The notes beneath the pieces were generated by a model. It saw only the letters and a list, made by a program, of their open reading frames with translations. It was not told the DNA's origin and searched no databases. 64,000 bases of DNA from Heterostelium album PN500 (taxonomy: Eukaryota > Evosea > Eumycetozoa > Acytosteliales > Acytosteliaceae): positions 434,001-498,000 of the forward strand of contig NW_008805077.1 of NCBI RefSeq assembly GCF_000004825.1. The letters run 5' to 3'. Below, piece by piece: positions 26,048 to 62,054 of the stretch. The position numbers and the translations under genes are program-made. Within the stretch, counting starts at the first letter, position 1. Every line of letters starts with the position of its first letter.

Positions 26048-27770
26048 ATGAATAATCAAACAAATACAATAGTAAATCTATCACATTTAATATTAAATAA
26101 AATTACAAATTTAATAGATGATAACATTGATAAAATCTGTTTCAGTTTAGTTTGTAAGAGATGGTTCGATGATAGAGATAAATATTTAATATTCAACACT
26201 GATAATATCTATATCTCGAGTGTGAATAGTATTGAAATTAAAGATTTTAAAAATAATCAGTATTTCAGATTGAAGTCGTATGAAAATATATTTCATAAAT
26301 CGATTGAATCAAAGAATGATTGTGTGCTTATTATTGCAAAGAATAAATTTAATCTAATTACATTTTGGGAAATGCAAAGAACTCAAAATTTTATTTATTA
26401 TGAAGGTAACTAAAACAAACTATTAAGCACTTTAAATAAAAATAGGTTTATCAAATTACTAATAATATTTTTTATTAAAAGATAAAATTAGAGAAATAGA
26501 ATATTTTCCATCATACATTACCAAAATTGATATTAAAACAGATTTTTCAAATGAAAAAGATTTAATACACTTTTATCGAGCACTGAATAAATCACAATCA
26601 GTCACGGAATTGAACAGATGTGGAACACTGAAATATGGAATACCACAATCAATCAGAAAACTAAGTTTTACATCGTTATTTAATGAAGAACTTGTCAAAG
26701 GATGTCTTCCGGCGAATTTGGTTACACTGGAATTCGGCACCTATTTCAATAAACAGATCAAAAATGGTATTCTTCCAGAGAGTTTGGTTAGCCTCAAACT
26801 TTGTAGAGTTTATAACTTTCCACCAGAAACAGGAGTACTTCCAGCTTCACTTAAAGTCTTGAGTATTAGCAGTGAAATGCCTCTCAAAGTTGGATCACTA
26901 CCGAATGGTTTGGAAAAACTAACACTCTCAGATCATCAGAAACTTCCAATTGAAGATCCTGGAGTACTACCACAATCTCTGAAAATTCTGAAAGGTATAC
27001 CTCACTCATGGCTCCCAGTATTACATCTACCGAACCTGCATTATCTCAGCGTAGTGGTCACAAACCAAAATCTAAATGATAGTGGTACAATCAACTTTGA
27101 TCAGTTACCATCAAACAACCTAAAGACTTTTAAAATGGAAATAGCTTATCTTTTGACTGGAACAGTTCCAACATCGATAACCAACTTGGTTTTAAGAAAG
27201 AGTAGACTCGACTTTAACAAACTATTTCCGAAAACATTGCAATATCACTTTGAAAGATTTGAATGCAGCATAGACCCATCTCAGATTCCAAATAATATAT
27301 CGATTGACAGATTGGTAGTTGAACTCAATGAACCTGTTACATCAATTCCACATCAAATCCAATCAGTTTCATTTAATACAGAGAGTTGGTTCTACAATAA
27401 ATTGATTAAATGCCGAATACCTCGAACAGTCACCGAGTTGAAAATTCCATTCAAGAATACCAAGCTTCCAATTGTATTGCCAAACTCCATCGAGACGATT
27501 CATATGTTCGATCACGAACTGAGTGAATGCATGGACTTAATTCCAACATCAGTTAAAACCATCATATTCACAAAACCTGTTCAACTATTGAATGACATTC
27601 CACAAAACATCAAAAACATCACCAATTTCATTATGCCTGGGCACTTTGCAATCAGAAAGTTGGATGAAAATTACTATATTATTTTAGGTAGCTATTCTCA
27701 TGAATCGGTTACCAAAATATTCCATCATTCAAAGCTGTCATTGTTTTTAAGTGATCCACTATATAAATAA
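26048..27770 (+). CDS. F-box protein with FNIP repeats (copy A)
   Basis: Exon 1 (26048-26405, phase 1) encodes the F-box (LSHLILNKITNLIDDNID, ICFSLVCKRWFDDRDKYL). Exon 2 (26482-27770) encodes FNIP-type units with cores such as NGILPESLVSL, TGVLPASLKVL and PGVLPQSLKIL. The total is 548 residues. Almost the same gene lies at 52624-54339 with its flanks, so this locus took part in a segmental duplication. The MNNQT start is conserved in all paralogues. The expected role is SCF substrate recognition, by family inference. Confidence 0.88.
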
Positions 27771-33466: not shown

Positions 33467-34003
33467 ATGGTTCAAATTAAAAGATTCTTTTCCAAAATTG
33501 GAAATAAAATTCATAAAAAAGGAAATTCATCAAAATCATCAAAGAAACAAACTTTAAATAATTTAGAATCCGCGAAATATATTCCAGTTTCAATTCCAAC
33601 AACAACAATTATAAATTCAGAAACAAAAGTTTCAACTCAATCACAATCACAAGTTCAACGAAATTCCGATCTCAGATTAAATTTGGAATCAATAATCAAA
33701 GGTATTCAAGAGAATAGAATATTAGAAGTGTTTGACAAGTTCTATCATCAAGATATTGTAATGTATGAGAAAGGTGATTCAACAAATAGAGTTGGTTTTG
33801 TTGAGAATAGAAAAGTAGAAGAAGGTTTCTCAAGTAATGCCACTGTACATGAAGCAAAGGTTTTGAAGATCATTGTTGATGGTGATAATACTGCGTATGA
33901 AATGTATATGGATTTCACATATGGTGGAAACAGAATGCAAAAGACACAATGGGCTTTCCAACAATGGAAAGATAATAAAGTTATAAAAGAAGAATTCTTT
34001 TAA
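33467..34003 (+). CDS. SnoaL-like / NTF2-fold domain protein
   Basis: 178 residues in one exon. The first 65 are a basic, Ser/Lys-rich leader (RFFSKIGNKIHKKG). The rest fits a SnoaL-like NTF2 fold: IQENRILEVFDKFYHQD, VMYEKGDSTNRVGFVENR, then strand-rich YEMYMDFTYGGNRMQ and TQWAFQQWKDNKVIKEEFF. This fold binds small ligands or catalyses cyclase and isomerase steps; no catalytic residue can be fixed here. The long leader is unusual for the fold and could direct localisation. Confidence 0.65.
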   Translation: MVQIKRFFSKIGNKIHKKGNSSKSSKKQTLNNLESAKYIPVSIPTTTIINSETKVSTQSQSQVQRNSDLRLNLESIIKGIQENRILEVFDKFYHQDIVMYEKGDSTNRVGFVENRKVEEGFSSNATVHEAKVLKIIVDGDNTAYEMYMDFTYGGNRMQKTQWAFQQWKDNKVIKEEFF

Positions 34004-34202
34004 TTGTAATAATAAATAGAAATAAAACTCAATTGTAAATAAAAAATTTAAATACAGTATAATGAATAAAATATGATATTTAATTATTTAATTAATAATA
34101 TGACAATAGATGTTTTTTTTGTTTATATATAAACAACAAGTACACAGTCAAAGTAAAACGCAAAAAAAATATAAGAATGTTGTTGATATTTAGTTTGATG
34201 AT

Positions 34203-36224
34203 TTAATATCTTGCTCTTAGTGCACCAAAGTTTCTCTTGCAAGTAGATGTGTCACCGGTACCTCTGTAGTTTCCGCTTTCATCAATGTCAAGTGCAATCA
34301 AACGGTCGAGATCTCTCCAGCTCTGATCGGCCTTGGCAAAAGCAATCGATGTTCCGTCCATCTTGGAAGATTGCAACTTGATGAAGCACCAACGTTCACA
34401 GATTTGCTCGTCGACCGACTTCTTACTCCAAAGGGCGTGTTCGTAGAGCAGCGCTGCCATATAGGTCTGAGACAAGAGGAAACTGAATTTCTTTGCGTTG
34501 GCAATTACGAAATCCAGATCATCAGAGCCATTGGAGATCTCGAGAATCGCCTTCACTGCATTCTCAATGGTTTGCTTGGCATTGGCGAGTGGACTGCCAG
34601 CTTTGGTAGTAGCAGCGGTCTTTGAACGGATCTCATCGAGTAAAACAACCAAAGAGTTGTGTGATTTAATAGATCTCCAGACATCCATTGACAAAACATT
34701 GGTAGTTCCCTCCCAGATAGCAGTTACCTGAGTATCTCTCAACAATCTTGGAATATCTGAATCCTCCATATAACCAGTTCCACCCATACATTCAATTGTT
34801 TCAGATGAAACTAAAATACTCTTTAAATAGTAATAAATTAAGTTAATATTGTTATAATAATGATAATAAATATGAAATACTTACTTGTTTGGCAGTATAG
34901 AGTTTTGAAAGTGGTGTTAAAATTCTTAGTAGTGAATCGATCTTTGGATTCTTTTCGAGACATTCCGATTGACCGAGTAAGAGTGATACGTTGAGGAGGA
35001 ATTGGAGTCCGGCACGATATTCAATTTCCATTTCGGCGAGTGTTGAGATGTAGAGTTGATTCTCGGCGAGACTGGAACCGAATACCTTACGACGGTGGGC
35101 GAAATCTCTGGCCAGTGCCACACCTCTACGCATTGTGGCAACCGAGTGAATTACATTGTGGATACGTGTGATGTTGAGAATCGATGCGATGATTGGTACA
35201 CCACGACCTTTGTTACCAATCATGACACCCTCGGTACCGAGTAGCTCAATTTCGGTGGTCGGAACGGCTTTCGTGCCAAACTTGTTCTTCATCTTGTGAA
35301 TCATCATGTTATTGAGGTCCTTTCCGTTGTCCTTGCGAATCTTTATGAAGAAAGCGGACAGTCCACGCGAACCACTACGGAATCCACCGGTCTCTGGCTC
35401 ACGGTCACGCGCGAGAATCATGGCAGTCTGCGCAGTGGTTGCACTAGTGAAATACTTGTATCCACTGATATCATAGCGATTCGATCCATCTTTTCTTGGT
35501 TCCGCTACGGACTCTGAGTTGGCTACGTCGGAGCCACCGGTCTTCTCAGTCATCCACTGTCCTGAAGTCCAGAAATTCTTTGGATCTCTAGTGACATAAT
35601 GAGGATAGGCAGTTGTCATCAACTCTTTATCACCGTACAACTCCAAGAGACGAGCACCACCATCTGTCATCGACAGTGGACAATCGAAAACCGCACTGGA
35701 ACAAGCAAACAAATATATCTTTAAATATTGATATAATCTACTGAATTCCTTTTGTTTTCTTTCATATCCAATACTGACCAATCCCTTTAATTAATTGTTT
35801 TGTTTTGTGAAATTTGTTAATAAACATACATATAATAATAATAATAAAAGCTATATAGTATTTCACCTAAGTGTTTCTTTCTACTTACTTCAACAGCAGA
35901 GATATCCTTAAGAATATTCCAACCTTCGTCTACTACGATTTTATCAATACGACGACCCCATGCATCATAGGCAACATGTTTTGGTGGGTTATTCTCACAG
36001 GCTCTGCCATACTCTAGGATATCACCCATTACACGATCACCGAATCTAACTAGATCAGGTTCGATTTCATTCAGGTAGTTCGATGGTACAACACGCTTGA
36101 GTGATTCAATCAAGTAGCTATCCTCCAAGTATTGATTTCCAAGTCTGGGTGCCTCTTGTTGGAAGTACTCATATCCAGATTGACCTTTCTGTTTACTTGA
36201 TGTTGTAATATTTTCTGTTGACAT
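34203..36224 (-). CDS. Acyl-CoA dehydrogenase, AidB-like
   Basis: Three exons (36224-35889, 35784-34885, 34820-34203) join in phase 0 to 617 residues, longer than the 400 of ordinary acyl-CoA dehydrogenases and near the size of AidB-type members. Hallmarks are FDCPLSMTDGGARLL, the FAD loop WMTEKTGGSDVANSES, HRRKVFGSSLAENQL, and ECMGGTGYMEDSDIPRLLRD with IWEGTTNVLSMDVWR, which supplies the catalytic Glu region. AidB of Escherichia coli is a flavoprotein of the alkylation response; eukaryotic relatives act on unusual acyl-CoAs. Substrate and compartment are unknown; the end (RARY) is not a peroxisomal SKL signal. Confidence 0.92.
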
Positions 36225-36635
36225 GTCTTTACTAATTCAATATTCAACAAAATATAACTAACACTAAAAAAAAATACAGATACAGAAACTTCAAGTAATA
36301 GTAATTAATTAAAAAAAATTAAATAACAAAAAAAATAACAAATAAACATCAAAAGTTAAGATGAACAAATGAATTAAACTTTTGTGGGTGGTTGAAAAAA
36401 ATCAACAAAAAAATGTAAAATGAAAAAAGAAATTTCATTTTTTTTTTAACCGATTAGGTATCTGATGACGACCTTTCCAACCATATGGTTTAATTAAAAG
36501 AATCTTTTTTGGATGTTCAGATAAATAAAATATGTTTTTATTTTATTTATTTTATTTAGTATTTTTATAATTCATTGTATTACAAATAAGTATTTATATT
36601 TCTATCGATTTGTTTGGTTATATTATTTTTACTAT
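36225..36635. other. Spacer, no gene seen
   Basis: AT-rich sequence between the dehydrogenase start and the 3' end of the small gene. Confidence 0.4.
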
Positions 36636-36906
36636 TTAAAAGAAGTGAGTTGATGGCTTTGGTGGTGGTGCTCTTTTACCATTCAAAAGTAAACGACATT
36701 CTATTTTCGAAATCAAATTATCAGATTCAAAGGATGTTTGATTTGTACTCGTCGACATTGTTGAATTTAAAACAGATGAAGAAGAAAATGAAAGAACTGA
36801 AATGAGGTTGTCTATTTTTTTTTTAAAAAAAAAAAAAAAAAAAAGTTAATAAAATATTAGAATAAAGTATTTTAAAAGTTAGTTAAGTATACATACTGAT
36901 TAACAT
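36636..36906 (-). CDS. Small spliced gene A (61 residues), NGKR...FF family
   Basis: A 10-base exon (36906-36897: ATG TTA ATC A) is followed by an 85-base intron (GTATGT...TAG) and exon 2 (36811-36636). Joined in phase 1 they encode 61 residues beginning MLINNLISVLSFSSSSV and ending LLLNGKRAPPPKPSTHFF. Serine and asparagine dominate the middle. The gene is invisible to simple ORF finding because the start is in the tiny exon. Its twin at 38179-38441 has the same first three codons, intron phase, size and tail. Dictyostelids have families of small Ser-rich developmental proteins with short first exons; membership of any known one is not established. Confidence 0.65.
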
Positions 36907-38178
36907 TTTAGATATAATATTATATATTTAGTTTTTTTTTGTTTTAAACAACTTTGATTTTTATATTTGTTTGTTTGTTTGAATGATTTAATTCGAATTG
37001 GTTCATTGAGTATTTATAGTTGTTTTTTCTTTGTTTATCAACGCGCATGCTTGGGAATTCAAATCAGATCAGTGAATGTCGGTGTTCTTGTGTACAACAA
37101 GCGTTTGTCGTTATTCTAAATTTAGACAAAGTTATTGATTTTTAATTGCGGTATACACAAAATGGTTAAATTGACAAAGTCTAGCTTTTTATCTTAATAA
37201 GGAAAGTAAAAGTTATTATTAGATCGTATTGCTTGTTGTATTGCTGGGATAGACACATATCAAATCACTGATTGTCTATCTCTCCAATCATCAAAAAGAC
37301 AAACATAACAATCAAGAAGTGAACAACCATCATCCAATGATAAAGAAAACAAAACAAAACAACCATTCAATTGTGAAAGGAAAAGACAAGGTCATTGTTG
37401 TTCTCTCTCTATTTCATATTTGAACATATATGTATATATCCTTATGCAATGCTTTCCATATATGGTTATTTCATCAACTGTCATGATGATCATTGATCAT
37501 TTAATAAAATGTAACAAATAATATCAAAATTGGTGTATCATCTATAAATCTGATTGATTGATTTGATATTATAGTTCAAGTGGGTTGTGTGTGTGAAATT
37601 CACTTACAATAATTGTGGGTGGTTGTTATTATATTTTACATCGACAAATTATATGTTTTTTTTTATTTATGATGGGTATGATTATCGATGTCGATTATCA
37701 CAAGATATATAATTTTTTATATCATTAAAACTTATTGAGATACATAAATTTATAAAAATATGCATATGTGGTGGTATATACATATCATTATTAATAAAAT
37801 AAAAAAAAAGTGTAAGTTCAAAAAATTAAAATTAACAAATAAATGTTTTTGTGTGTGTGTGAAATGTGGATGACCAAAGTTACACTCTCCAATCAATATT
37901 AGATTTTTATCTATCAATCTGATTAATATTCATTTATCCAATGAAATAATAAGATCATTCTATTTGAAAATAAATGATTGGAATAAAAAATATATATGAT
38001 TCTCATAACTTTTAGTTTAACTGATATAGTATTCATATAAAATAAATTATATATTTTATTTGTAATTTTAAAAGATTGTTACTTTTATTTGAAATTTACA
38101 ATATATTACAAAAATTAAATTAGAGGTTAAGGTTGGTGTTGAAAAAGATTTTGAATATTGAAATCGAAGTTGGGAATC
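36907..38178. other. Non-coding stretch upstream of small gene A
   Basis: A 1.3 kb AT-rich region. A CTATAAATAC motif near 37013-37022 on the minus strand could be the TATA box of gene A. Alternating TG-rich stretches (37570-37630, 37840-37880) occur. No gene seen. Confidence 0.4.
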
Positions 38179-38441
38179 TTAAAAAAATCTAGTAGTTGGT
38201 TTGGTAGTAAATCTTCTCTTTCCATTTAAAAAATATAGATTAAGATTAAGTCTTTGAGTTTCATTTAGAGATTGGATACTACTACTATTGATTGAAGAAT
38301 CAAAAATGCTACTTATATCGGAATCTCTTTTTATTAATATAGAACCTAAGGAAGATAATGATTCTAAAAAAAATAAAATTAATAAAATGTTTTTTTTTTT
38401 GGAAAAATTAGATATCTTTTTAAGTACTTACCAATTAACAT
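38179..38441 (-). CDS. Small spliced gene B (64 residues), NGKR...FF family
   Basis: Exon 1 is 10 bases (38441-38432: ATG TTA ATT G), the intron 66 bases (GTAAGT...TAG), and exon 2 38363-38179. The joined frame gives 64 residues: it starts MLIESLSSLGSILIKRDS, has an SSS-rich middle, and ends YFLNGKRRFTTKPTTRFF. The leader just before the ATG is a run of AAAAG repeats. The shared architecture with gene A, 1.3 kb away and on the same strand, argues for a tandem duplicate pair that has diverged in the centre while keeping both ends. Confidence 0.65.
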
Positions 38442-40049
38442 TTTCTTTTCTTTTCTTTTCTTATTTTATTTTATATTCGTTTAGTTTAATTAATAAGAGA
38501 AATTAGATTTGAGATTAATTTATAAAACACAAACTATTATAAATTTATTTAAATGTAAAAAAATGATTGATCATTAAATATAAAAAAAATCATGTTTGAT
38601 TTGAACACCCAATATTAACTATTCATTCTACAAATTAAGTGTTAATTAAGCACTATAACAACTTTCCCCGATCTAACTTTATTTGGTATTTTAAATAAAA
38701 TGAGTACATACATTGAATTGATATTCATACCAATTTTAATTTAATCAAACAAATATACCACACATCACACATTGTCAAGACACATTGTTATTTGTGTATT
38801 TTATCAAAGTGGATTTACTTTTTTTTTTTTTTTGTTACCACAAACTTGATTCATTGATATCAAGATCTTTTGAGGTACTAGTTAAACCAAAAATTATTTT
38901 TTTTTCAAATAATACACCTTTGTTTTACATCTAGATGAATATATACTGCATAGTTTTCCTGATTTAGAAATATTTAAATTTGGATATTCAAATTAAATAA
39001 AAGTTACATGTAGATTAAAGTCAATAGTATTGGTTGTTCTTGAAATTAAAAAAAAAATCCATATCTTATATTGATAATTACTCTATTTGCTATTATTCTA
39101 TATCATCAAATATAATTGAGTATGATTTTAATATATATTTTATTTGTTATTTATAAATGAAATGTCAAATTAAATTATGTTCGATATATTGTTGTTTTTC
39201 ATTAAATAAGAATAGATTCGTGTTTTATTTCATTTAAAATGTTATCTATATTAAATTCATAAACAGGAATCTAATACAATCTACCATTAACTCTATCTTC
39301 TTGTGTATATGCCCTATTATTATTGTTTTAATAATTTTTGTTGTTGTTAATATGATATTGATATTTGAAAAATGCTTACAAATCATCTTCCTCCATAGTT
39401 TGGAAATCTATATTGTAAACATCGTTGCCCATAGGTTTGATAATAGATAATTCATAGAACTCCTCTTCTGTTAGTTCTCTTAATAAGAAACAAGTTCTGG
39501 TTCTACTTCTAACGAACTACCAAACAAAACTATTAATAAATAATACGTACAATTTCATTGTTTTTTCTATATAAATAAATTGATTTATATATAGTTTACT
39601 ATTTTTTGTATAATTAATGATTACAATTGAAATTCAAACATAAAGGAATATTATCATCATTGTATTCTTGATATTTGCTGATACAGGCGATACAAATAAG
39701 TTTTAATTTTTCACTTCATGTTGGTACAATAAATAATAGGCGTATATCATCAAAAAAGTAAAAAAAATGTGTTAATGATCAAAAAAAATAAAAGAAAAAA
39801 AAAAAAAACAAACCAATTAATTAATAAAAATAGTAATGGTATTGTTACTATTCATTTATTTAAAATCTACAATTATAAAATATTTTCATTATTTTTAATA
39901 TTTTTGTTGTTGTTTTGTTGTTTTGTTGTTATAAGAATGATGGTGATTGTAAGAGAATTGTGATATATGTATATATTAATTTGAATGATTTAATTGGTTG
40001 ATTGATTGATTGATTAAAGATGAGTTGATAATCTTCTTTATAATATAAT
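38442..40049. other. Intergenic, with an exon-like patch at 39376-39516
   Basis: On the minus strand, from an AG at 39518-39517, 46 codons run to a stop at 39376 (FVRSRTRTCFLLRELTEEEF, then IIKPMGNDVYNIDF, end MEEDDL). About 100 bases upstream another open patch (LICIACISKYQEYNDDN, then LCLNF) has paired cysteines like a small zinc finger. No splice join in frame could be found, so this may be a decayed or mis-sequenced gene. The rest is AT-rich. Confidence 0.35.
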
Positions 40050-41015
40050 TTATGAATCATCAGTCTCTGGTTCGAGATCGGTCTCTTTAATGAATTGATC
40101 CAATTCTTTAGCATCGAAAATATGGTACACCAACTTGTCGTCCTTTCTAGTGATATATGAAAACTCCAACTTGTCAGAGTTGATATTCGATCTATCCATA
40201 GTCTTTGTCAAAACCTTCAAAGCCAACTCTAAAGCTTCCTTCAATGAGAGATCTGGTTTATAGTTTGATCTCAACACTGATTGCGCAACCTAATATAAAT
40301 AGCAATAGTAATAGTAATAATAATAACAAACAGAATTAATAAAAGTTTGTTTTGTTGTTGAACGTTCAAAAATAGTAACATAATGTAAACATACTTGACT
40401 GTTCTCACCACCGATGGAAGTAGCTTTCCAACCAGCGAAATTACCGGATGGATCGGATTGGTAGAGTTGGAAACCGTGATGGATGTCCCAACCGGCGTAG
40501 AGGAAAGATACTCCGAATGGACGAAGACCACCGTACTGTGTGTAACCTTGTTTGGTGTCGCAGATCTGTGATACCAGTTGCTCTACAGGCATTGGCTCCT
40601 GATAGTTGTAGTAGTAACGCTGTGAACTTAGTCTTGCATAGTTGATGAGAATGTTGGCGTCCGAAGTGATACCAGCCACTGCACATACGACATGGTCGTC
40701 AATCTTGAACATCTTTTCCGACTGTGAAAGCGATGAGTCCAATAGTTTAGCGACAGTCTTCTTCTCTGCTGCCAATACTATACCGTCTTGTGCCAAGATA
40801 CCGACTGTGGCACCTGCATGTCTGATCGCTGTCATTGCATACTCTACTTGATAGATTCTACCCTCTGGTGAGAAAATAGTTGTTCTTTGATCGTATCTTC
40901 TTGCCTATAGTAGTATCGTTAAATAAAATAAATATATAAAGAGATGTAATAATATTTATTCAAATATATTAGATTTTAATCTAAATTTATGATTCTAGTA
41001 ATTATTTCTTACCAT
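40050..41015 (-). CDS. psmA4: 20S proteasome subunit alpha type-4
   Basis: Structural alpha-ring subunit of the 20S core. Exon 1 contributes only the ATG (41015-41013), directly followed by GTAAGA; exon 2 (40904-40395) begins [16 protein letters not shown], with [39 protein letters not shown] and [17 protein letters not shown]; exon 3 (40289-40050) ends with an acidic tail. The total is 250 residues, close to the family norm. The YQSDPSGN block and the RRYD start single out alpha-4 over other alpha subunits. All joins are phase 0. Confidence 0.95.
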
Positions 41016-43361: not shown

Positions 43362-44560
43362 GGTGGTCTGAATTTGTGGGATCTATCTCTTCGTTCTGCT
43401 GCCTATAGGATATGGGTCTTTAATAGATTCCTATTGTTAAGTAGAAGCAACTCATTTGGTTACTTCAAAATTTGGTCATCCATGCTTGATTGTGCCAAAA
43501 AATTTACTAATCCAACTTCATCACCATCCTTCAAACTGTTCCATTCGTCTTGGATGGATTTTAGAAACAATCACTTCTCCAGAGTCGTACCTGGCAATCC
43601 CATCCTTGCTGATGATGGTAGTCTCCTTACTCTGAAGGAAATCTATTCTGTCCTATTCAACCACAAGTATCCCCGAGTCCGCCGTACTGAAGGTCAACTA
43701 ACCATCCAGATTGGTCACTCTTTGGTTCTCCAATCTCAGTTTCTGCATATATCCAAGGTCAAAGCGCCTATGCTACGTAACAGCATATTCCGGCTGTACT
43801 CTCACACCTTCCCCATCAACCACAAGCTCACTGGTCATGTCTGTGAGTTCTGTGGTGACACCTTCACTGATATTGAACTCTGCAACCCACATGAGCATTT
43901 CTTCTTCAAAAGCAGGAATGTAGTTTCACAGCAGTTCCTTTCCATTATCAAACATATATACCACAAGTACTGTAACTATAGACTTCGTAATTGGAAGCAC
44001 TCTTGCATCAAGTTCGACGGTCCTATTCGTACTACTGTCCACTTCACCCACCTTACTGCTGCTATCGTACATTCGTTATGGCAGGCGCTGTCCTGTAAAA
44101 TGTTTGGTGATGGTACCCATTACAAGCTGGAAAATACCGTCAAGAGAGCAGTCTCCCATTATACCAAATTAATCGATGCCAATTACCACAAGCTTAACTT
44201 CACAATAGCTAATTATATCTCCCAAGGAGTCACTGTCGATTGCTCTGCAATAACGCCTAAATTTAAATCTGATTGGAATCTAAATCCTTCCAACTACGTG
44301 CCACCACTTTATACTGTTGTTCATCATCACTCAACTACTGTTAGATATATTCTATCTTAATACTACTAAACTTATTAATTAATAATAACTATAAACAATA
44401 ATAATAATAATAATATTTTATGGGCTATTTCTCACGGCCTGTGTGAGAATGTATATATAATATAAAACACGAACTGGCAGGTTAATATCAATACCTGCAA
44501 TTTGTTGACTGATCGTGAGTCAACAAATCTTTTTTTCAAAAAAAAAATAAAATAAAATAA

Positions 44561-52623: not shown

Positions 52624-54339
52624 ATGAATAATCAAACAAATACAATAGTAAATCTATCACATTTAATTTTAAATAAAATTACAAATTTAATAGATGATAA
52701 CATTGATAAAATCTGTTTCAGTTTAGTTTGTAAGAGATGGTTTGATGATAGAGATAAATATTTAATATTCAACACTGATAATATCTATATCTCGAGTGTG
52801 AATAGTATTGAAATTAAAGATTTTAAAAATAATCAGTATTTCAGATTGAAGTCGTATGAAAATATATTTCATAAATCGATTGAATCAAAGAATGATTGTG
52901 TGCTTATTATTGCAAAGAATAAATTTAATCTAATTACATTTTGGGAAATGCAAAGAACTCAAAATTTTATTTATTATGAAGGTAACTAAACAAACTATTA
53001 GACATTTTAAACAATATTCCTGATAAGATATATATTTATTAAATTCATTTTTAAAGATAAAATTAGAGAAATAGAATATTTTCCATCATACATTACCAAA
53101 ATTGATATTAAGACAGATTTTTTCGATGAAGAAGATTTAATACACTTTTATAGAGCACTGAATAAATCACAATCAGTCACGGAATTGAATAGATGTGGAA
53201 CACTTAAATATGGATTACCACAATCAATCAGAAAACTAAGTTTAGCATCGTATTTTAATGATGAACTTGTCAAAGGATGTCTTCCAGCTAACTTGGTTAC
53301 ACTGGAATTCGGAACCTATTTCAATAAACAGATCAAACATGGCATTCTTCCAGAGAGTTTGGTTATCCTCAAGTATGGTTGGGTTTATAAAATTTCACCT
53401 GAAATAGGAGTACTTCCAGCTTCACTTAAAGTCTTGAGTATTAGCAGTGAAATGCCTCTCAAAGTTGGATCACTACCACATAGTTTGGAAAAACTAACTC
53501 TATCAGAACATCGGATACTTCCAATTGAAGATCCTGGAGTACTACCACAATCTCTGAAAATTCTGAAAGGTATACCTCACTCATGGCTTCCAGTATTACA
53601 TCTACCAAACTTGCATTCTCTCAGTGTCACAAACCAAAATCTAAATGATAGTGGTACAATCAACTTTGATCAGTTACCATCAAACAACCTAAAGACTTTT
53701 AAAATGGAAAGAGCTTATCTTTTGACTGGAACAGTTCCAACATCGATAACCAACTTGGTTTTAAGAAAGAGTAAACTCGACTTTGACAAACTATTTCCGA
53801 AAACATTGCAATATCACTTTGAACGATTTGAATGCAGCATAGACCCATCTCAGATTCCAAATAATATATCGATTGACAGATTGGTAGTTGAACTCAAGGA
53901 ACCTGTTACATCAATTCCACATCAAATCCAATCAGTTTCATTTAATACAGAGAGTTGGTTCTACACTAAATTGATTGAATGTCGAATACCTCGAACAGTC
54001 ACCGAGTTGAAAATTCCATTCAAGAATACCAAGCTTCCAATTGTATTGCCAAACTCCATCGAGACGATTCATATATTCGATAACGAACTGAGTGAATGCA
54101 TGGACTTAATTCCAACATCAGTTAAAACCATCATATTCATAAAACCTGTTCAACTATTGAATGACATTCCACAAAACATCAAAAATATCACCAATTTCAT
54201 TATGCCTGGGCACTTTGCAATCAGAAAGTTGGATGAAAATTACTATATTATTTTAGGAAGCTATAATTTTGAGTCAGTTACCAAAATATTCCATCATTCA
54301 AAGCTGTCATTGTTTTTAAGTGATCCACTATATAAATAA
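52624..54339 (+). CDS. F-box protein with FNIP repeats (copy B)
   Basis: Almost the same gene as 26048-27770. Exon 1 (52624-52981) gives an identical F-box protein part; exon 2 (53057-54339) has in-frame differences, for instance two codons fewer, giving 546 residues. The introns differ much more than the exons: the copy B intron contains its own sequence ahead of the acceptor. Both copies remain open, so both may be functional. This copy sits between the arms of the Ran-like inverted duplication. Confidence 0.88.
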
Positions 54340-60388: not shown

Positions 60389-61941
60389 GTTATTATTGTT
60401 ATTATTATTATTGTTATAGTTATTATTAATTAATAAGTTGAGTAGTATTAGGATAGAATAGATCTAACAGTAGTTGCGTGTTGATGAACAACAGTATAAA
60501 GCGGTGGCACGTAGTTGGAAGGATTTAAATTCCAATCAGATTTAAATTTACGCGTTAATGCAGAGCAATCGACAGTGATTCCTTGGGAGATAGAATTAGC
60601 GATTGTGAAATTAAGCTTGTGGTAATTGGCATCGATTAATTTGGTGTAATGGGTGACTGCTCTTTTGACGGTATTTTCCAGCTTGTAATGGGTACCATCA
60701 CCAAACATTTCACAGGACAGCGCCTGCCATAACGAATGTACGATAGCAGCAGTAAGGTGGGTGAAGTGGACAGTAGTACGAATAGGACCGTCGAACTTGA
60801 TGCACGAGTGCTTCCAATTGCGAAGTCTATAGTTACAGTACTTGTGGTATATATGTTTGATAATGGAAAGGAACTGCTGTGAAAACACATTCCTGCATTT
60901 GAAGAAGAAATGCTCATGTGGGTTGCAGAGTTCAGTGAAGGTGTCACCACAGAACTCACAGACATGACCAGTGCGCTTGTGGTTGATGGGGAAGGTGTGA
61001 GAGTACAGCCGGAATATGCTGTTACGTAGCATAGGCGCTTTGACCTTGGATATATGCAGGAACTGAGATTGGAGAACCAAAGAGTGACCAATCTGGATAG
61101 TTAGTTGACCTTCAGTACGGCGGACTCGGGGATACTTGTGGTTGAATAGGACAGAATAGATTTCCTTCAGAGTAAGGAGACTACCATCATCAGCAAGGAT
61201 GGGATTGCCCGGTACGACTCTGGAGAAGTGATTGTTTCTAAAATCCATCCAAGACGAATGGAACAGTTTGAAGGATGGTGAAGAAGTTGGATTAGTAAAT
61301 TTTTTGGCACAATCAAGCATGGATGACCAAGTTTTGAAGTAACCAAAAGAGTTGCTTCTACTTAACAACAGGAATCTATTAAAGACCCATATCTTATAAG
61401 CAGCAGAGCGAAGAGATAGATCCCACAAATTCAGACCACCATCATTCCAGTGAAAGCAAGACCTGTCCAAAGACATCAAAGCGGTGAACTTTGCTTTGGC
61501 ATCAGGAGCACTGGTGAAGAACCAAGCGATAAGTCTGTTGACAAGCTTGATTTGATCAGGTGTGGGCGATTCAAGATAGAAGTGATAGAAGAGCATGGGA
61601 AGCACATAAGATTTAATGATAGTTGATTTAGCTCTTAGAGTATAAACTTTATACTTATACAGAGCTAGGTTAGCTTTAATAAGATTGATTATACTTGCCA
61701 GTTTGGAGCAGTGACCATCCGGGTTGAAATTGACACCTAAGTATCTTTCAGGGACGGTGGAGACAGGGAACGGAAGGTTGGTGGTGGAAGTGTTACCGAG
61801 CGGAATGATAACCGATTTACTAGAGTTAACATCCGCAGTGGTGGATAGCTTGAACAGGTTAAACCAGTGGATGACTCTATGCAGTTCACCCAGGTTCCTG
61901 GTGAAAGCGTTCAAAATTTCACAGGACTTTTCGCATGCGGA
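60200..61941 (-). mobile_element. TRE-like LINE copy downstream of tRNA-Phe, 5'-truncated
   Basis: The longest copy in the window. An open frame runs from the junction at 61941 to a stop at 60448, about 495 codons of the ORF2 C-terminal half: SACEKSCEILNAFTRN, PERYLGVNFNPDGHCSKL, IIKSYVLPMLFYHFYLE, DLSLRSAAYKIWVFNRF, and the zinc-finger region VCEFCGDTF...CNPHEHFFFKC. Then come the AAT microsatellite, a CTCACACAGGCCGTGAG stem, two more stem-loops and the tail (T-tract at 60191-60216). The catalytic reverse-transcriptase core is missing. It lies 40 bases past the tRNA 3' end. It can be used to align the other copies. Confidence 0.9.
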
Positions 61942-61980
61942 CAATAAAAATTTAAAAATTAAAAATTTAAAAATTAAAAA

Positions 61981-62054
61981 TGCCATCTGTCGGGATCGAA
62001 CCAACGACCTTAAGATCTTCAGTCTTACGCTACTACCAGCTGAGCTAAGACGGC
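61981..62054 (-). tRNA. tRNA-Phe (GAA)
   Basis: Acceptor stem GCCGTCT/AGATGGC, anticodon stem TAAGA/TCTTA around CTGAAGA giving GAA, and T-arm TTGGTTCGATCC. No intron. An AT-rich spacer separates it from the LINE-like copy. Confidence 0.95.

What the first reader, a model, noticed from the sequence alone, without database searches (positions are those of the whole stretch)
36636..38441. Two small spliced genes hidden from ORF finding, with 10-base first exons and a shared NGKR...FF tail
Both genes begin ATG TTA AT(C/T) plus one base, splice in phase 1 to a second exon, and encode 61 and 64 residues that start MLI and end LNGKR, a short linker with P, then T/H and FF. The ends agree while the middle differs, the sign of selection on a peptide-like product. 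Neither shows as a normal open frame. The basic NGKR next to the end could be a processing or binding site; that is a guess.
Basis: partly seen in the sequence, partly recalled or inferred. Interest (0 to 1): 0.8.

Follow-up and report, generated by a model that had tools for sequence, protein, structure and literature searches.

The report
Tiny-first-exon slime-mould small-protein gene pair
Two neighbouring social-amoeba genes that begin with a ten-base exon look real, are already annotated, and are best read as divergent relatives of a known group of tiny developmental genes, with a conserved tail whose role is untested.

Summary
In Heterostelium album PN500 both gene models are as described: 10-base first exon, phase-1 intron (85 and 68 nt), 61 and 64 residues, shared LNGKR...KPxTxFF tail. 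They are not hidden from annotation: public models PPL_10913 and PPL_10914 are identical. The tiny first exon is the published hallmark of the sigN/hssA/2C/7E small developmental genes of Dictyostelium discoideum (89 of 96 with 13 nt; PMC2257962). In this genome I read 46 gene models with a 10-nt and 25 with a 13-nt first exon. Gene 2 has an hssA-like N-half (0 of 19,988 shuffles score as high); gene 1 has an hssA-like promoter; the reverse tests fail. Neither matches Pfam PF05710, so they are divergent relatives, not hssA proteins proper. The tail match beats chance (10 of 17; 0 of 200,000 shuffles) but was found only in this pair. Likely role, inferred: redundant developmental small proteins whose tail is a short binding or processing motif. 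Transcription and splicing could not be tested.

The parts
36897..36906 (-). gene 1 (PPL_10913) exon 1, ATGTTAATCA, 10 nt
   Evidence: protein identical to the public model
36812..36896 (-). gene 1 intron, 85 nt, phase 1
   Evidence: GTATGT...AATAG
36636..36811 (-). gene 1 exon 2 with stop codon
36672..36683 (-). NGKR codons of gene 1, followed by 11 residues APPPKPSTHFF
37011..37019 (-). CTATAAATA box 113 nt upstream of the gene 1 ATG, near the start of a stretch of about 95 nt that aligns with upstream regions of 13-nt hssA-type genes
38432..38441 (-). gene 2 (PPL_10914) exon 1, ATGTTAATTG, 10 nt
   Evidence: protein identical to the public model
38364..38431 (-). gene 2 intron, 68 nt, phase 1
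   Evidence: GTAAGT...TTTAG
38179..38363 (-). gene 2 exon 2 with stop codon; residues 1-39 of the protein are hssA-like
38215..38226 (-). NGKR codons of gene 2, followed by 11 residues RFTTKPTTRFF
38605..38611 (-). TGGGTGT, a match to the published GBF consensus (T/G)G(T/G)G(T/G)G(T/G) upstream of gene 2
   Evidence: sequence; consensus in PMC2257962; set-wide counts

Best explanation
The two genes are a diverged tandem pair in the large dictyostelid group of tiny-first-exon small-protein genes, of which sigN/hssA/2C/7E is the studied branch. Shown here: the gene anatomy, the shared architecture in this genome, gene 2's hssA-like N-half, gene 1's hssA-like promoter, and the conserved tail. Inferred: each gene is switched on during multicellular development, probably in the prestalk/stalk lineage as for D. 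discoideum sigN genes; a 10-base exon supplies the start codon and the intron follows at once; the product is a soluble, largely disordered Ser/Asn-rich small protein acting redundantly with many paralogues; its C-terminal NGKR-x9-FF tail is a short linear motif that fixes the partner, location or cleavage, while the N-half is generic.
For: Architecture: ATGTTAATYNGTADG occurs 27 times in the genome against 2 for the reversed control, and 24 of 27 splice in phase 1 to small proteins. A 13-nt pattern gives 32 hits against 2, and 18 of 18 fetched give such proteins. 12 of 12 PF05710 loci listed have a tiny first exon: 8 of 13 nt, 4 of 10 nt (one read by eye). Public predicted proteins of other members begin with the same MLI or MLF start, 10 of 10. 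Homology: gene 2 scores 18.7 bits against an H. album hssA N-half profile, 0 of 19,988 shuffles reaching it, and its exon 2 ranks first of 943 window pieces (13.9 against 6.9 bits). Gene 1's 160-nt upstream region scores 64 and 57 with 13-nt hssA genes L036 and L040, against a maximum of 37 for 39 control upstreams. QSxN, QTxN, ESxN or QGxN is in 40 of 62 models against 7.1 (max 16) on shuffling (motif chosen after looking), and both window genes have it. Published: 89 of 96 D. discoideum genes with a 13-nt exon 1, prestalk expression, vesicle staining.
Against: Neither protein matches PF05710 at E up to 1. Gene 1's N-half does not score with the hssA profile (-3.8 bits, 184 of 200 shuffles at least as high), and of 34 non-hssA models only 4 (gene 2 among them, the best) had 0 of 200 shuffles as high; so common descent of the whole tiny-exon set rests on architecture, not on protein sequence. 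Gene 2's upstream resembles none of 30 members beyond controls, and gene 1's best score (65) is with an A-rich stretch of L075 rather than an hssA gene. CTATAAATA is absent upstream of gene 2, and gene 1 has no GBF-type match within 500 nt. Expression and function are carried over from D. discoideum. Published deletions of 13 sigN genes and of six small-protein genes singly gave no phenotype, and a frame-shifted hssA still suppressed a mutant, which speaks for RNA rather than protein action in that branch.
Confidence: 0.76

Rival explanations
1. The NGKR site is a processing signal (Gly-Lys-Arg, as in amidated peptide precursors; recalled): the small protein leaves the cell by an unconventional route and is cut to release an 11-residue peptide, APPPKPSTHFF or RFTTKPTTRFF.
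For: The distance from NGKR to the stop is the same (11 residues) in both genes, and NGKR and KP-x-T-x-FF are conserved despite synonymous change. SigN proteins were reported in vesicles and proposed to be secreted (PMC2257962).
Against: No signal-peptide predictor was run; the hydropathy maximum over 19 residues is only 1.16 (gene 1) and 0.61 (gene 2). The released 11-mers agree at only 5 of 11 residues. None of the other 60 models checked has NGKR.
Confidence: 0.12
2. The RNA, not the protein, is the active product, as suggested for hssA, where a frame-shifted copy still suppressed a STATa mutant.
For: Reported for hssA in PMC6198379 (passage). Some H. album paralogues carry frame-shifted tails (L108 against L109; L044).
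Against: In this pair 5 of 10 conserved tail codons differ only synonymously and both frames stay open to a shared stop position, which points to selection on the protein. No Rfam match at the gathering threshold in 34000-40500.
Confidence: 0.12
3. Chance or annotation artefact: two unrelated AT-rich stretches that happen to splice.
For: AT-rich genome; no transcript data seen here; the public models are predictions; gene 2's upstream resembles no other member beyond controls.
Against: Tail match 0 of 200,000 shuffles; 27 against 2 for the exon-intron pattern; hssA-like N-half of gene 2.
Confidence: 0.02

Closest known systems
sigN / hssA / 2C / 7E small-protein genes of Dictyostelium discoideum (PMC2257962; PMC6198379)
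   Same: Two exons, tiny first coding exon ending in phase 1, one short intron, product under 120 residues; gene 2 also has an N-half like H. album hssA-type proteins.
   Different: First exon 10 nt (MLI) rather than 13 nt; no Gly/Cys-rich C-half; a basic-aromatic NGKR...FF tail instead; no PF05710 match. D. discoideum sequences themselves were not at hand.
SRCP1 (serine-rich chaperone protein 1), an 88-aa D. discoideum protein placed in the same large class of small-protein genes (PMC8554618, PMC8578527)
   Same: Small Ser-rich dictyostelid protein of the same broad class, by the papers' account.
   Different: Its sequence was not compared here; its published activity is suppression of polyglutamine aggregation.
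H. album KPFWxVW-tail genes (for example PPL_06302 and PPL_03651)
   Same: 10-nt first exon (mostly MLI, some MLF or MLL), short Asn/Ser-rich product, C-terminal K-P-aromatic ending.
   Different: Tail KPFWxVW or similar, no NGKR. A profile of 13 of these found 10 database proteins, all 10 from H. album.

Membership tests
Tiny-first-exon small-protein genes (sigN/hssA type architecture) | first coding exon of 13 (or here 10) nt, ending in phase 1, one short intron, one second exon | tested here: met
   with 10 nt instead of 13; published definition
Tiny-first-exon small-protein genes (sigN/hssA type architecture) | product under 120 residues | tested here: met
   61 and 64 aa
hssA/sigN proteins proper (Pfam PF05710) | PF05710 match over the curated cut-off | tested here: not met
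   0 families at E up to 1 for both proteins, while two H. album hssA-like proteins in the same call score 50.9 and 45 bits
hssA/sigN proteins proper (Pfam PF05710) | hssA-like N-half (SLxSLGN ... QSxN) | tested here: inconclusive
   gene 2 yes (18.7 bits, 0 of 19,988 shuffles); gene 1 no
hssA/sigN proteins proper (Pfam PF05710) | Gly/Cys-rich C-half | tested here: not met
   sequences
sigN-type regulation | GBF-type sites and a shared core promoter | tested here: inconclusive
   GBF consensus upstream of gene 2 only; CTATAAATA and hssA-like promoter for gene 1 only
sigN-type regulation | post-aggregative, prestalk expression | not testable with these tools
   no H. album expression data at hand; supplementary files closed
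Secreted processed peptide precursors | signal peptide and dibasic cleavage | tested here: inconclusive
   Gly-Lys-Arg present, no strong hydrophobic N-terminus by hydropathy; no dedicated predictor and no cleavage data

The most novel reading that the evidence does not exclude
These genes belong to a modular system: a standard 5' cassette (promoter, tiny exon, intron and Ser-rich N-half ending near a QSxN motif) carries interchangeable C-terminal tails, and NGKR...FF is one tail under its own selection. In support, two H. album paralogues (C33:75006 and C33:77197) are 96.8% identical over 300 nt upstream and 100% in the intron, and identical over the first 98 nt of exon 2, up to the QSANQI codons, after which only 21 of the next 60 bases agree and different tails follow; in the NGKR pair the reverse holds, the tail staying while the rest drifts.
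Probability: 0.3. Interest if true: 0.55.

Novelty: new variant of a known kind. Interest (0 to 1): 0.4.

Why it matters
The hssA/7E/2C family counts nearly 100 genes in D. discoideum, with some cup-cell members extremely highly expressed (PMC6198379, passages), yet its function is unsettled and deletions show nothing. A review calls the hssA/7E/2C peptides 'Group 4-specific' (PMC8067170, passage). This genome, of a species usually placed in group 2 (recalled), holds 12 PF05710 loci, all with the tiny first exon, plus many relatives with other tails. That would make the architecture older than group 4, and the NGKR...FF ending gives a conserved tail motif that can be mutated directly.

Tried and rejected
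Unrelated chance splicing: disfavoured by pattern and tail statistics. Structured RNA: no Rfam match at the gathering threshold in 34000-40500. Structure prediction of gene 2 with a two-sequence alignment gave mean pLDDT 60.5, pTM 0.25 and one long helix (2-49); too weak to use, and no fold search was made. Gene 2 upstream against 30 members: none above the maximum (47) of 39 controls. Nucleotide-level preference in exon 1 (ATC over ATT) was looked at, but the patterns selected for it, so no claim is made. Literature: a search for PPL_10914 found 0 papers, one for Polysphondylium pallidum with hssA gave 2, and one for at least 4 of 6 related terms gave 2; open-licence PubMed Central only.

What was read of papers: PMC2257962 outline, abstract and parts 1-4 of 6 of its main section; PMC8554618 part 1 of 2 of the text; PMC6198379, PMC8578527, PMC9117722 and PMC8067170 passages only.

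Rows dropped and choices made: acceptors were chosen by eye among those giving an open frame. Of the 27 exact 10-nt pattern hits 3 were judged chance (L009, L014, L018). Of 81 hits with up to 2 mismatches, 21 were exact and 60 inexact; of the inexact, 9 new loci (L069-L077, 8 valid) and 20 fetched regions (14 valid, one of them, L087, doubtful) were read, 3 were already in the exact set, and 28 were not read. Of 32 13-nt hits, 18 were fetched, 7 were read as PF05710 loci (two of these, L036_2828 and L044, with frame-shifted tails), and 7 were not read. The promoter sets used 32 representatives of the 47 models held at that point; the two frame-shifted models were left out of the profile test; the motif and NGKR counts used 62 of the 71 models, recent duplicates included and L079-L084, L107, L109 and L118 left out. 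Several public models of KPFWxVW genes end differently from mine, with further introns near the stop.

Full report
What the sequence shows. The window is G000:C16:434001-498000 of a 32.9-Mb genome; the database names gene 2 as PPL_10914 of Heterostelium album PN500. On the minus strand two small genes lie about 1.3 kb apart, between what look by eye, without a family search, like acyl-CoA-dehydrogenase exons (below 36224) and a proteasome-subunit gene (above 40000). Gene 1: exon 1 36906-36897, intron of 85 nt, exon 2 36811-36636, 61 aa. Gene 2: exon 1 38441-38432, intron of 68 nt, exon 2 38363-38179, 64 aa. Both equal public predicted proteins PPL_10913 and PPL_10914 letter for letter. The tails FLNGKRRFTTKPTTRFF and LLNGKRAPPPKPSTHFF agree at 10 of 17 residues with the same distance to the stop; 0 of 200,000 shuffles match this, while the middle parts are near chance (307 of 5,000). 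Five of the ten conserved codons differ synonymously. That pattern fits selection on the protein tail.

The tiny exon is a group trait. A pattern for the 10-nt exon plus donor, ATGTTAATYNGTADG, gives 27 places in the genome against 2 for the reversed control, and 24 of the 27 give small phase-1 spliced proteins. Relaxed forms add MLF, MLL and MLY versions: 8 of 9 loci and 14 of 20 fetched regions. A 13-nt form, ATGACNWTHWTNNGTADG, gives 32 places against 2; 18 of 18 fetched encode such proteins and 7 more are hssA-type models. In all I read 46 10-nt and 25 13-nt gene models, the window pair included. Public predictions for 10 other members also start MLI or MLF. Among the models are hssA proteins proper: 12 PF05710 loci listed, of which 8 have a 13-nt and 4 a 10-nt exon (C16:108126 read by eye in the sequence). 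The others carry varied tails, such as KPFWAVW (a cluster on C30), LGIKxxATVL or YAPRWYN.

Link of the pair to the hssA branch. Gene 2's residues 1-39 align to a profile of 11 H. album hssA N-halves with 18.7 bits; 0 of 19,988 shuffles that keep MLI reach this (maximum 14.5), and its exon 2 is the best of 943 six-frame pieces of the window (13.9 bits, next 6.9). Gene 1 fails this test (-3.8 bits), as do most others: only 4 of 34 non-hssA models had 0 of 200 shuffles as high. So for the wider set the shared exon structure, not protein similarity, is the evidence. Gene 1's upstream region aligns over about 95 nt with 13-nt hssA genes (scores 64 and 57; maximum of 39 control upstreams 37; 6 of 30 members exceed the controls, the highest, 65, being an A-rich match to L075), from AACTATAAATAC through AAATCATTCAAA. 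Gene 2's upstream shows no such match. CTATAAATA is upstream of 11 of 32 representatives, against a shuffle mean of 0.56, 2.1% of random window stretches, and 0 of 39 window ORFs, many of which are inner exons and so imperfect controls. GBF-type sites are within 500 nt of 16 of 32 (shuffle mean 5.9, maximum 10; random window stretches 24.6%), gene 2 among them, gene 1 not. Both proteins carry a QSxN or ESxN motif; QSxN, QTxN, ESxN or QGxN, a set chosen after looking, is in 40 of 62 models (shuffle mean 7.1, maximum 16). Neither protein matches PF05710. I therefore call them divergent relatives with the group's architecture, not hssA proteins. The mended count of failed N-half tests lowers my confidence slightly, from 0.78 to 0.76.

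What is known of the group. In D. discoideum 96 related genes were listed and 89 have a 13-nt first exon; studied members are induced from about 10 h in prestalk cells, have GBF-type promoter sites and vesicle staining, and antibodies to one group dispersed mounds, but deletion of 13 genes gave no phenotype, and the antibodies did not detect the protein on Western blots except when over-expressed (PMC2257962). Cup cells express a clade of hssA genes highly, and a frame-shifted hssA still suppressed a mutant (PMC6198379 passages). Six knock-outs of single small-protein genes gave no phenotype, and an 88-aa member of the class gives resistance to polyglutamine aggregation (PMC8554618; named SRCP1 in PMC8578527).

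Mechanism. Most likely these are developmentally induced, soluble, Ser/Asn-rich small proteins, redundant with paralogues, whose C-terminal tail is a short linear motif. The anatomy is shown; expression, redundancy and the tail's role are inferred. A processing reading (Gly-Lys-Arg followed by 11 residues) stays open at low probability. The tail was found only in these two genes: single-protein searches of the genome give only the pair, 2 of 62 models hold NGKR, and a profile search of 5.8 billion proteins gives only the pair (9 candidates, 2 hits). That search needs shared exact words, so distant homologues may be missed.

Tail modularity. Two paralogues on C33 (L032, L034) are 96.8% identical over 300 nt upstream, 100% over a 108-nt intron, and identical over the first 98 nt of exon 2, to the QSANQI codons; of the next 60 bases 21 agree and the tails differ. 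On C10, L108 and L109 differ by single-base indels that shift the tail frame. From these two cases I infer that tails can change fast under a constant 5' part, by exchange, gene conversion or frame shift, whereas in the NGKR pair the tail is the conserved part. An assembly error at C33 is not excluded.

Noticed in passing
G000:C33:75006, 76376, 77197 (L032-L034): Three tandem tiny-exon genes with similar N-halves; two of them (L032, L034) share upstream region, intron and the first 98 nt of exon 2 almost exactly but have different tails from a sharp boundary at the QSANQI codons.
   Followed up: partly
G000:C2, C4, C7, C16 (L036-L047): 12 PF05710 (hssA-type) loci in a species usually placed outside group 4 (recalled), although a review calls the hssA/7E/2C peptides 'Group 4-specific' (PMC8067170, passage).
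   Followed up: partly
G000:C30:261311-283493: Cluster of tiny-exon genes with a KPFWAVW-type ending; database hits for this group are all H. album (10 of 10). Several public models add introns near the stop, which looks like mis-annotation.
   Followed up: partly
L108 against L109 (G000:C10:72269 and 73078): Neighbouring, divergently oriented paralogues whose tails differ by single-base indels that shift the frame.
   Followed up: partly
window 26048-27770 and 52624-54339: Near-identical ORF pairs (121 aa, and 297/295 aa) in two places of the window, which suggests a segmental duplication among repeated ORF families.
   Followed up: no
window 43482-44360 and 60448-61986: Two copies of a related long ORF on opposite strands, possibly from a retroelement; not searched.
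   Followed up: no
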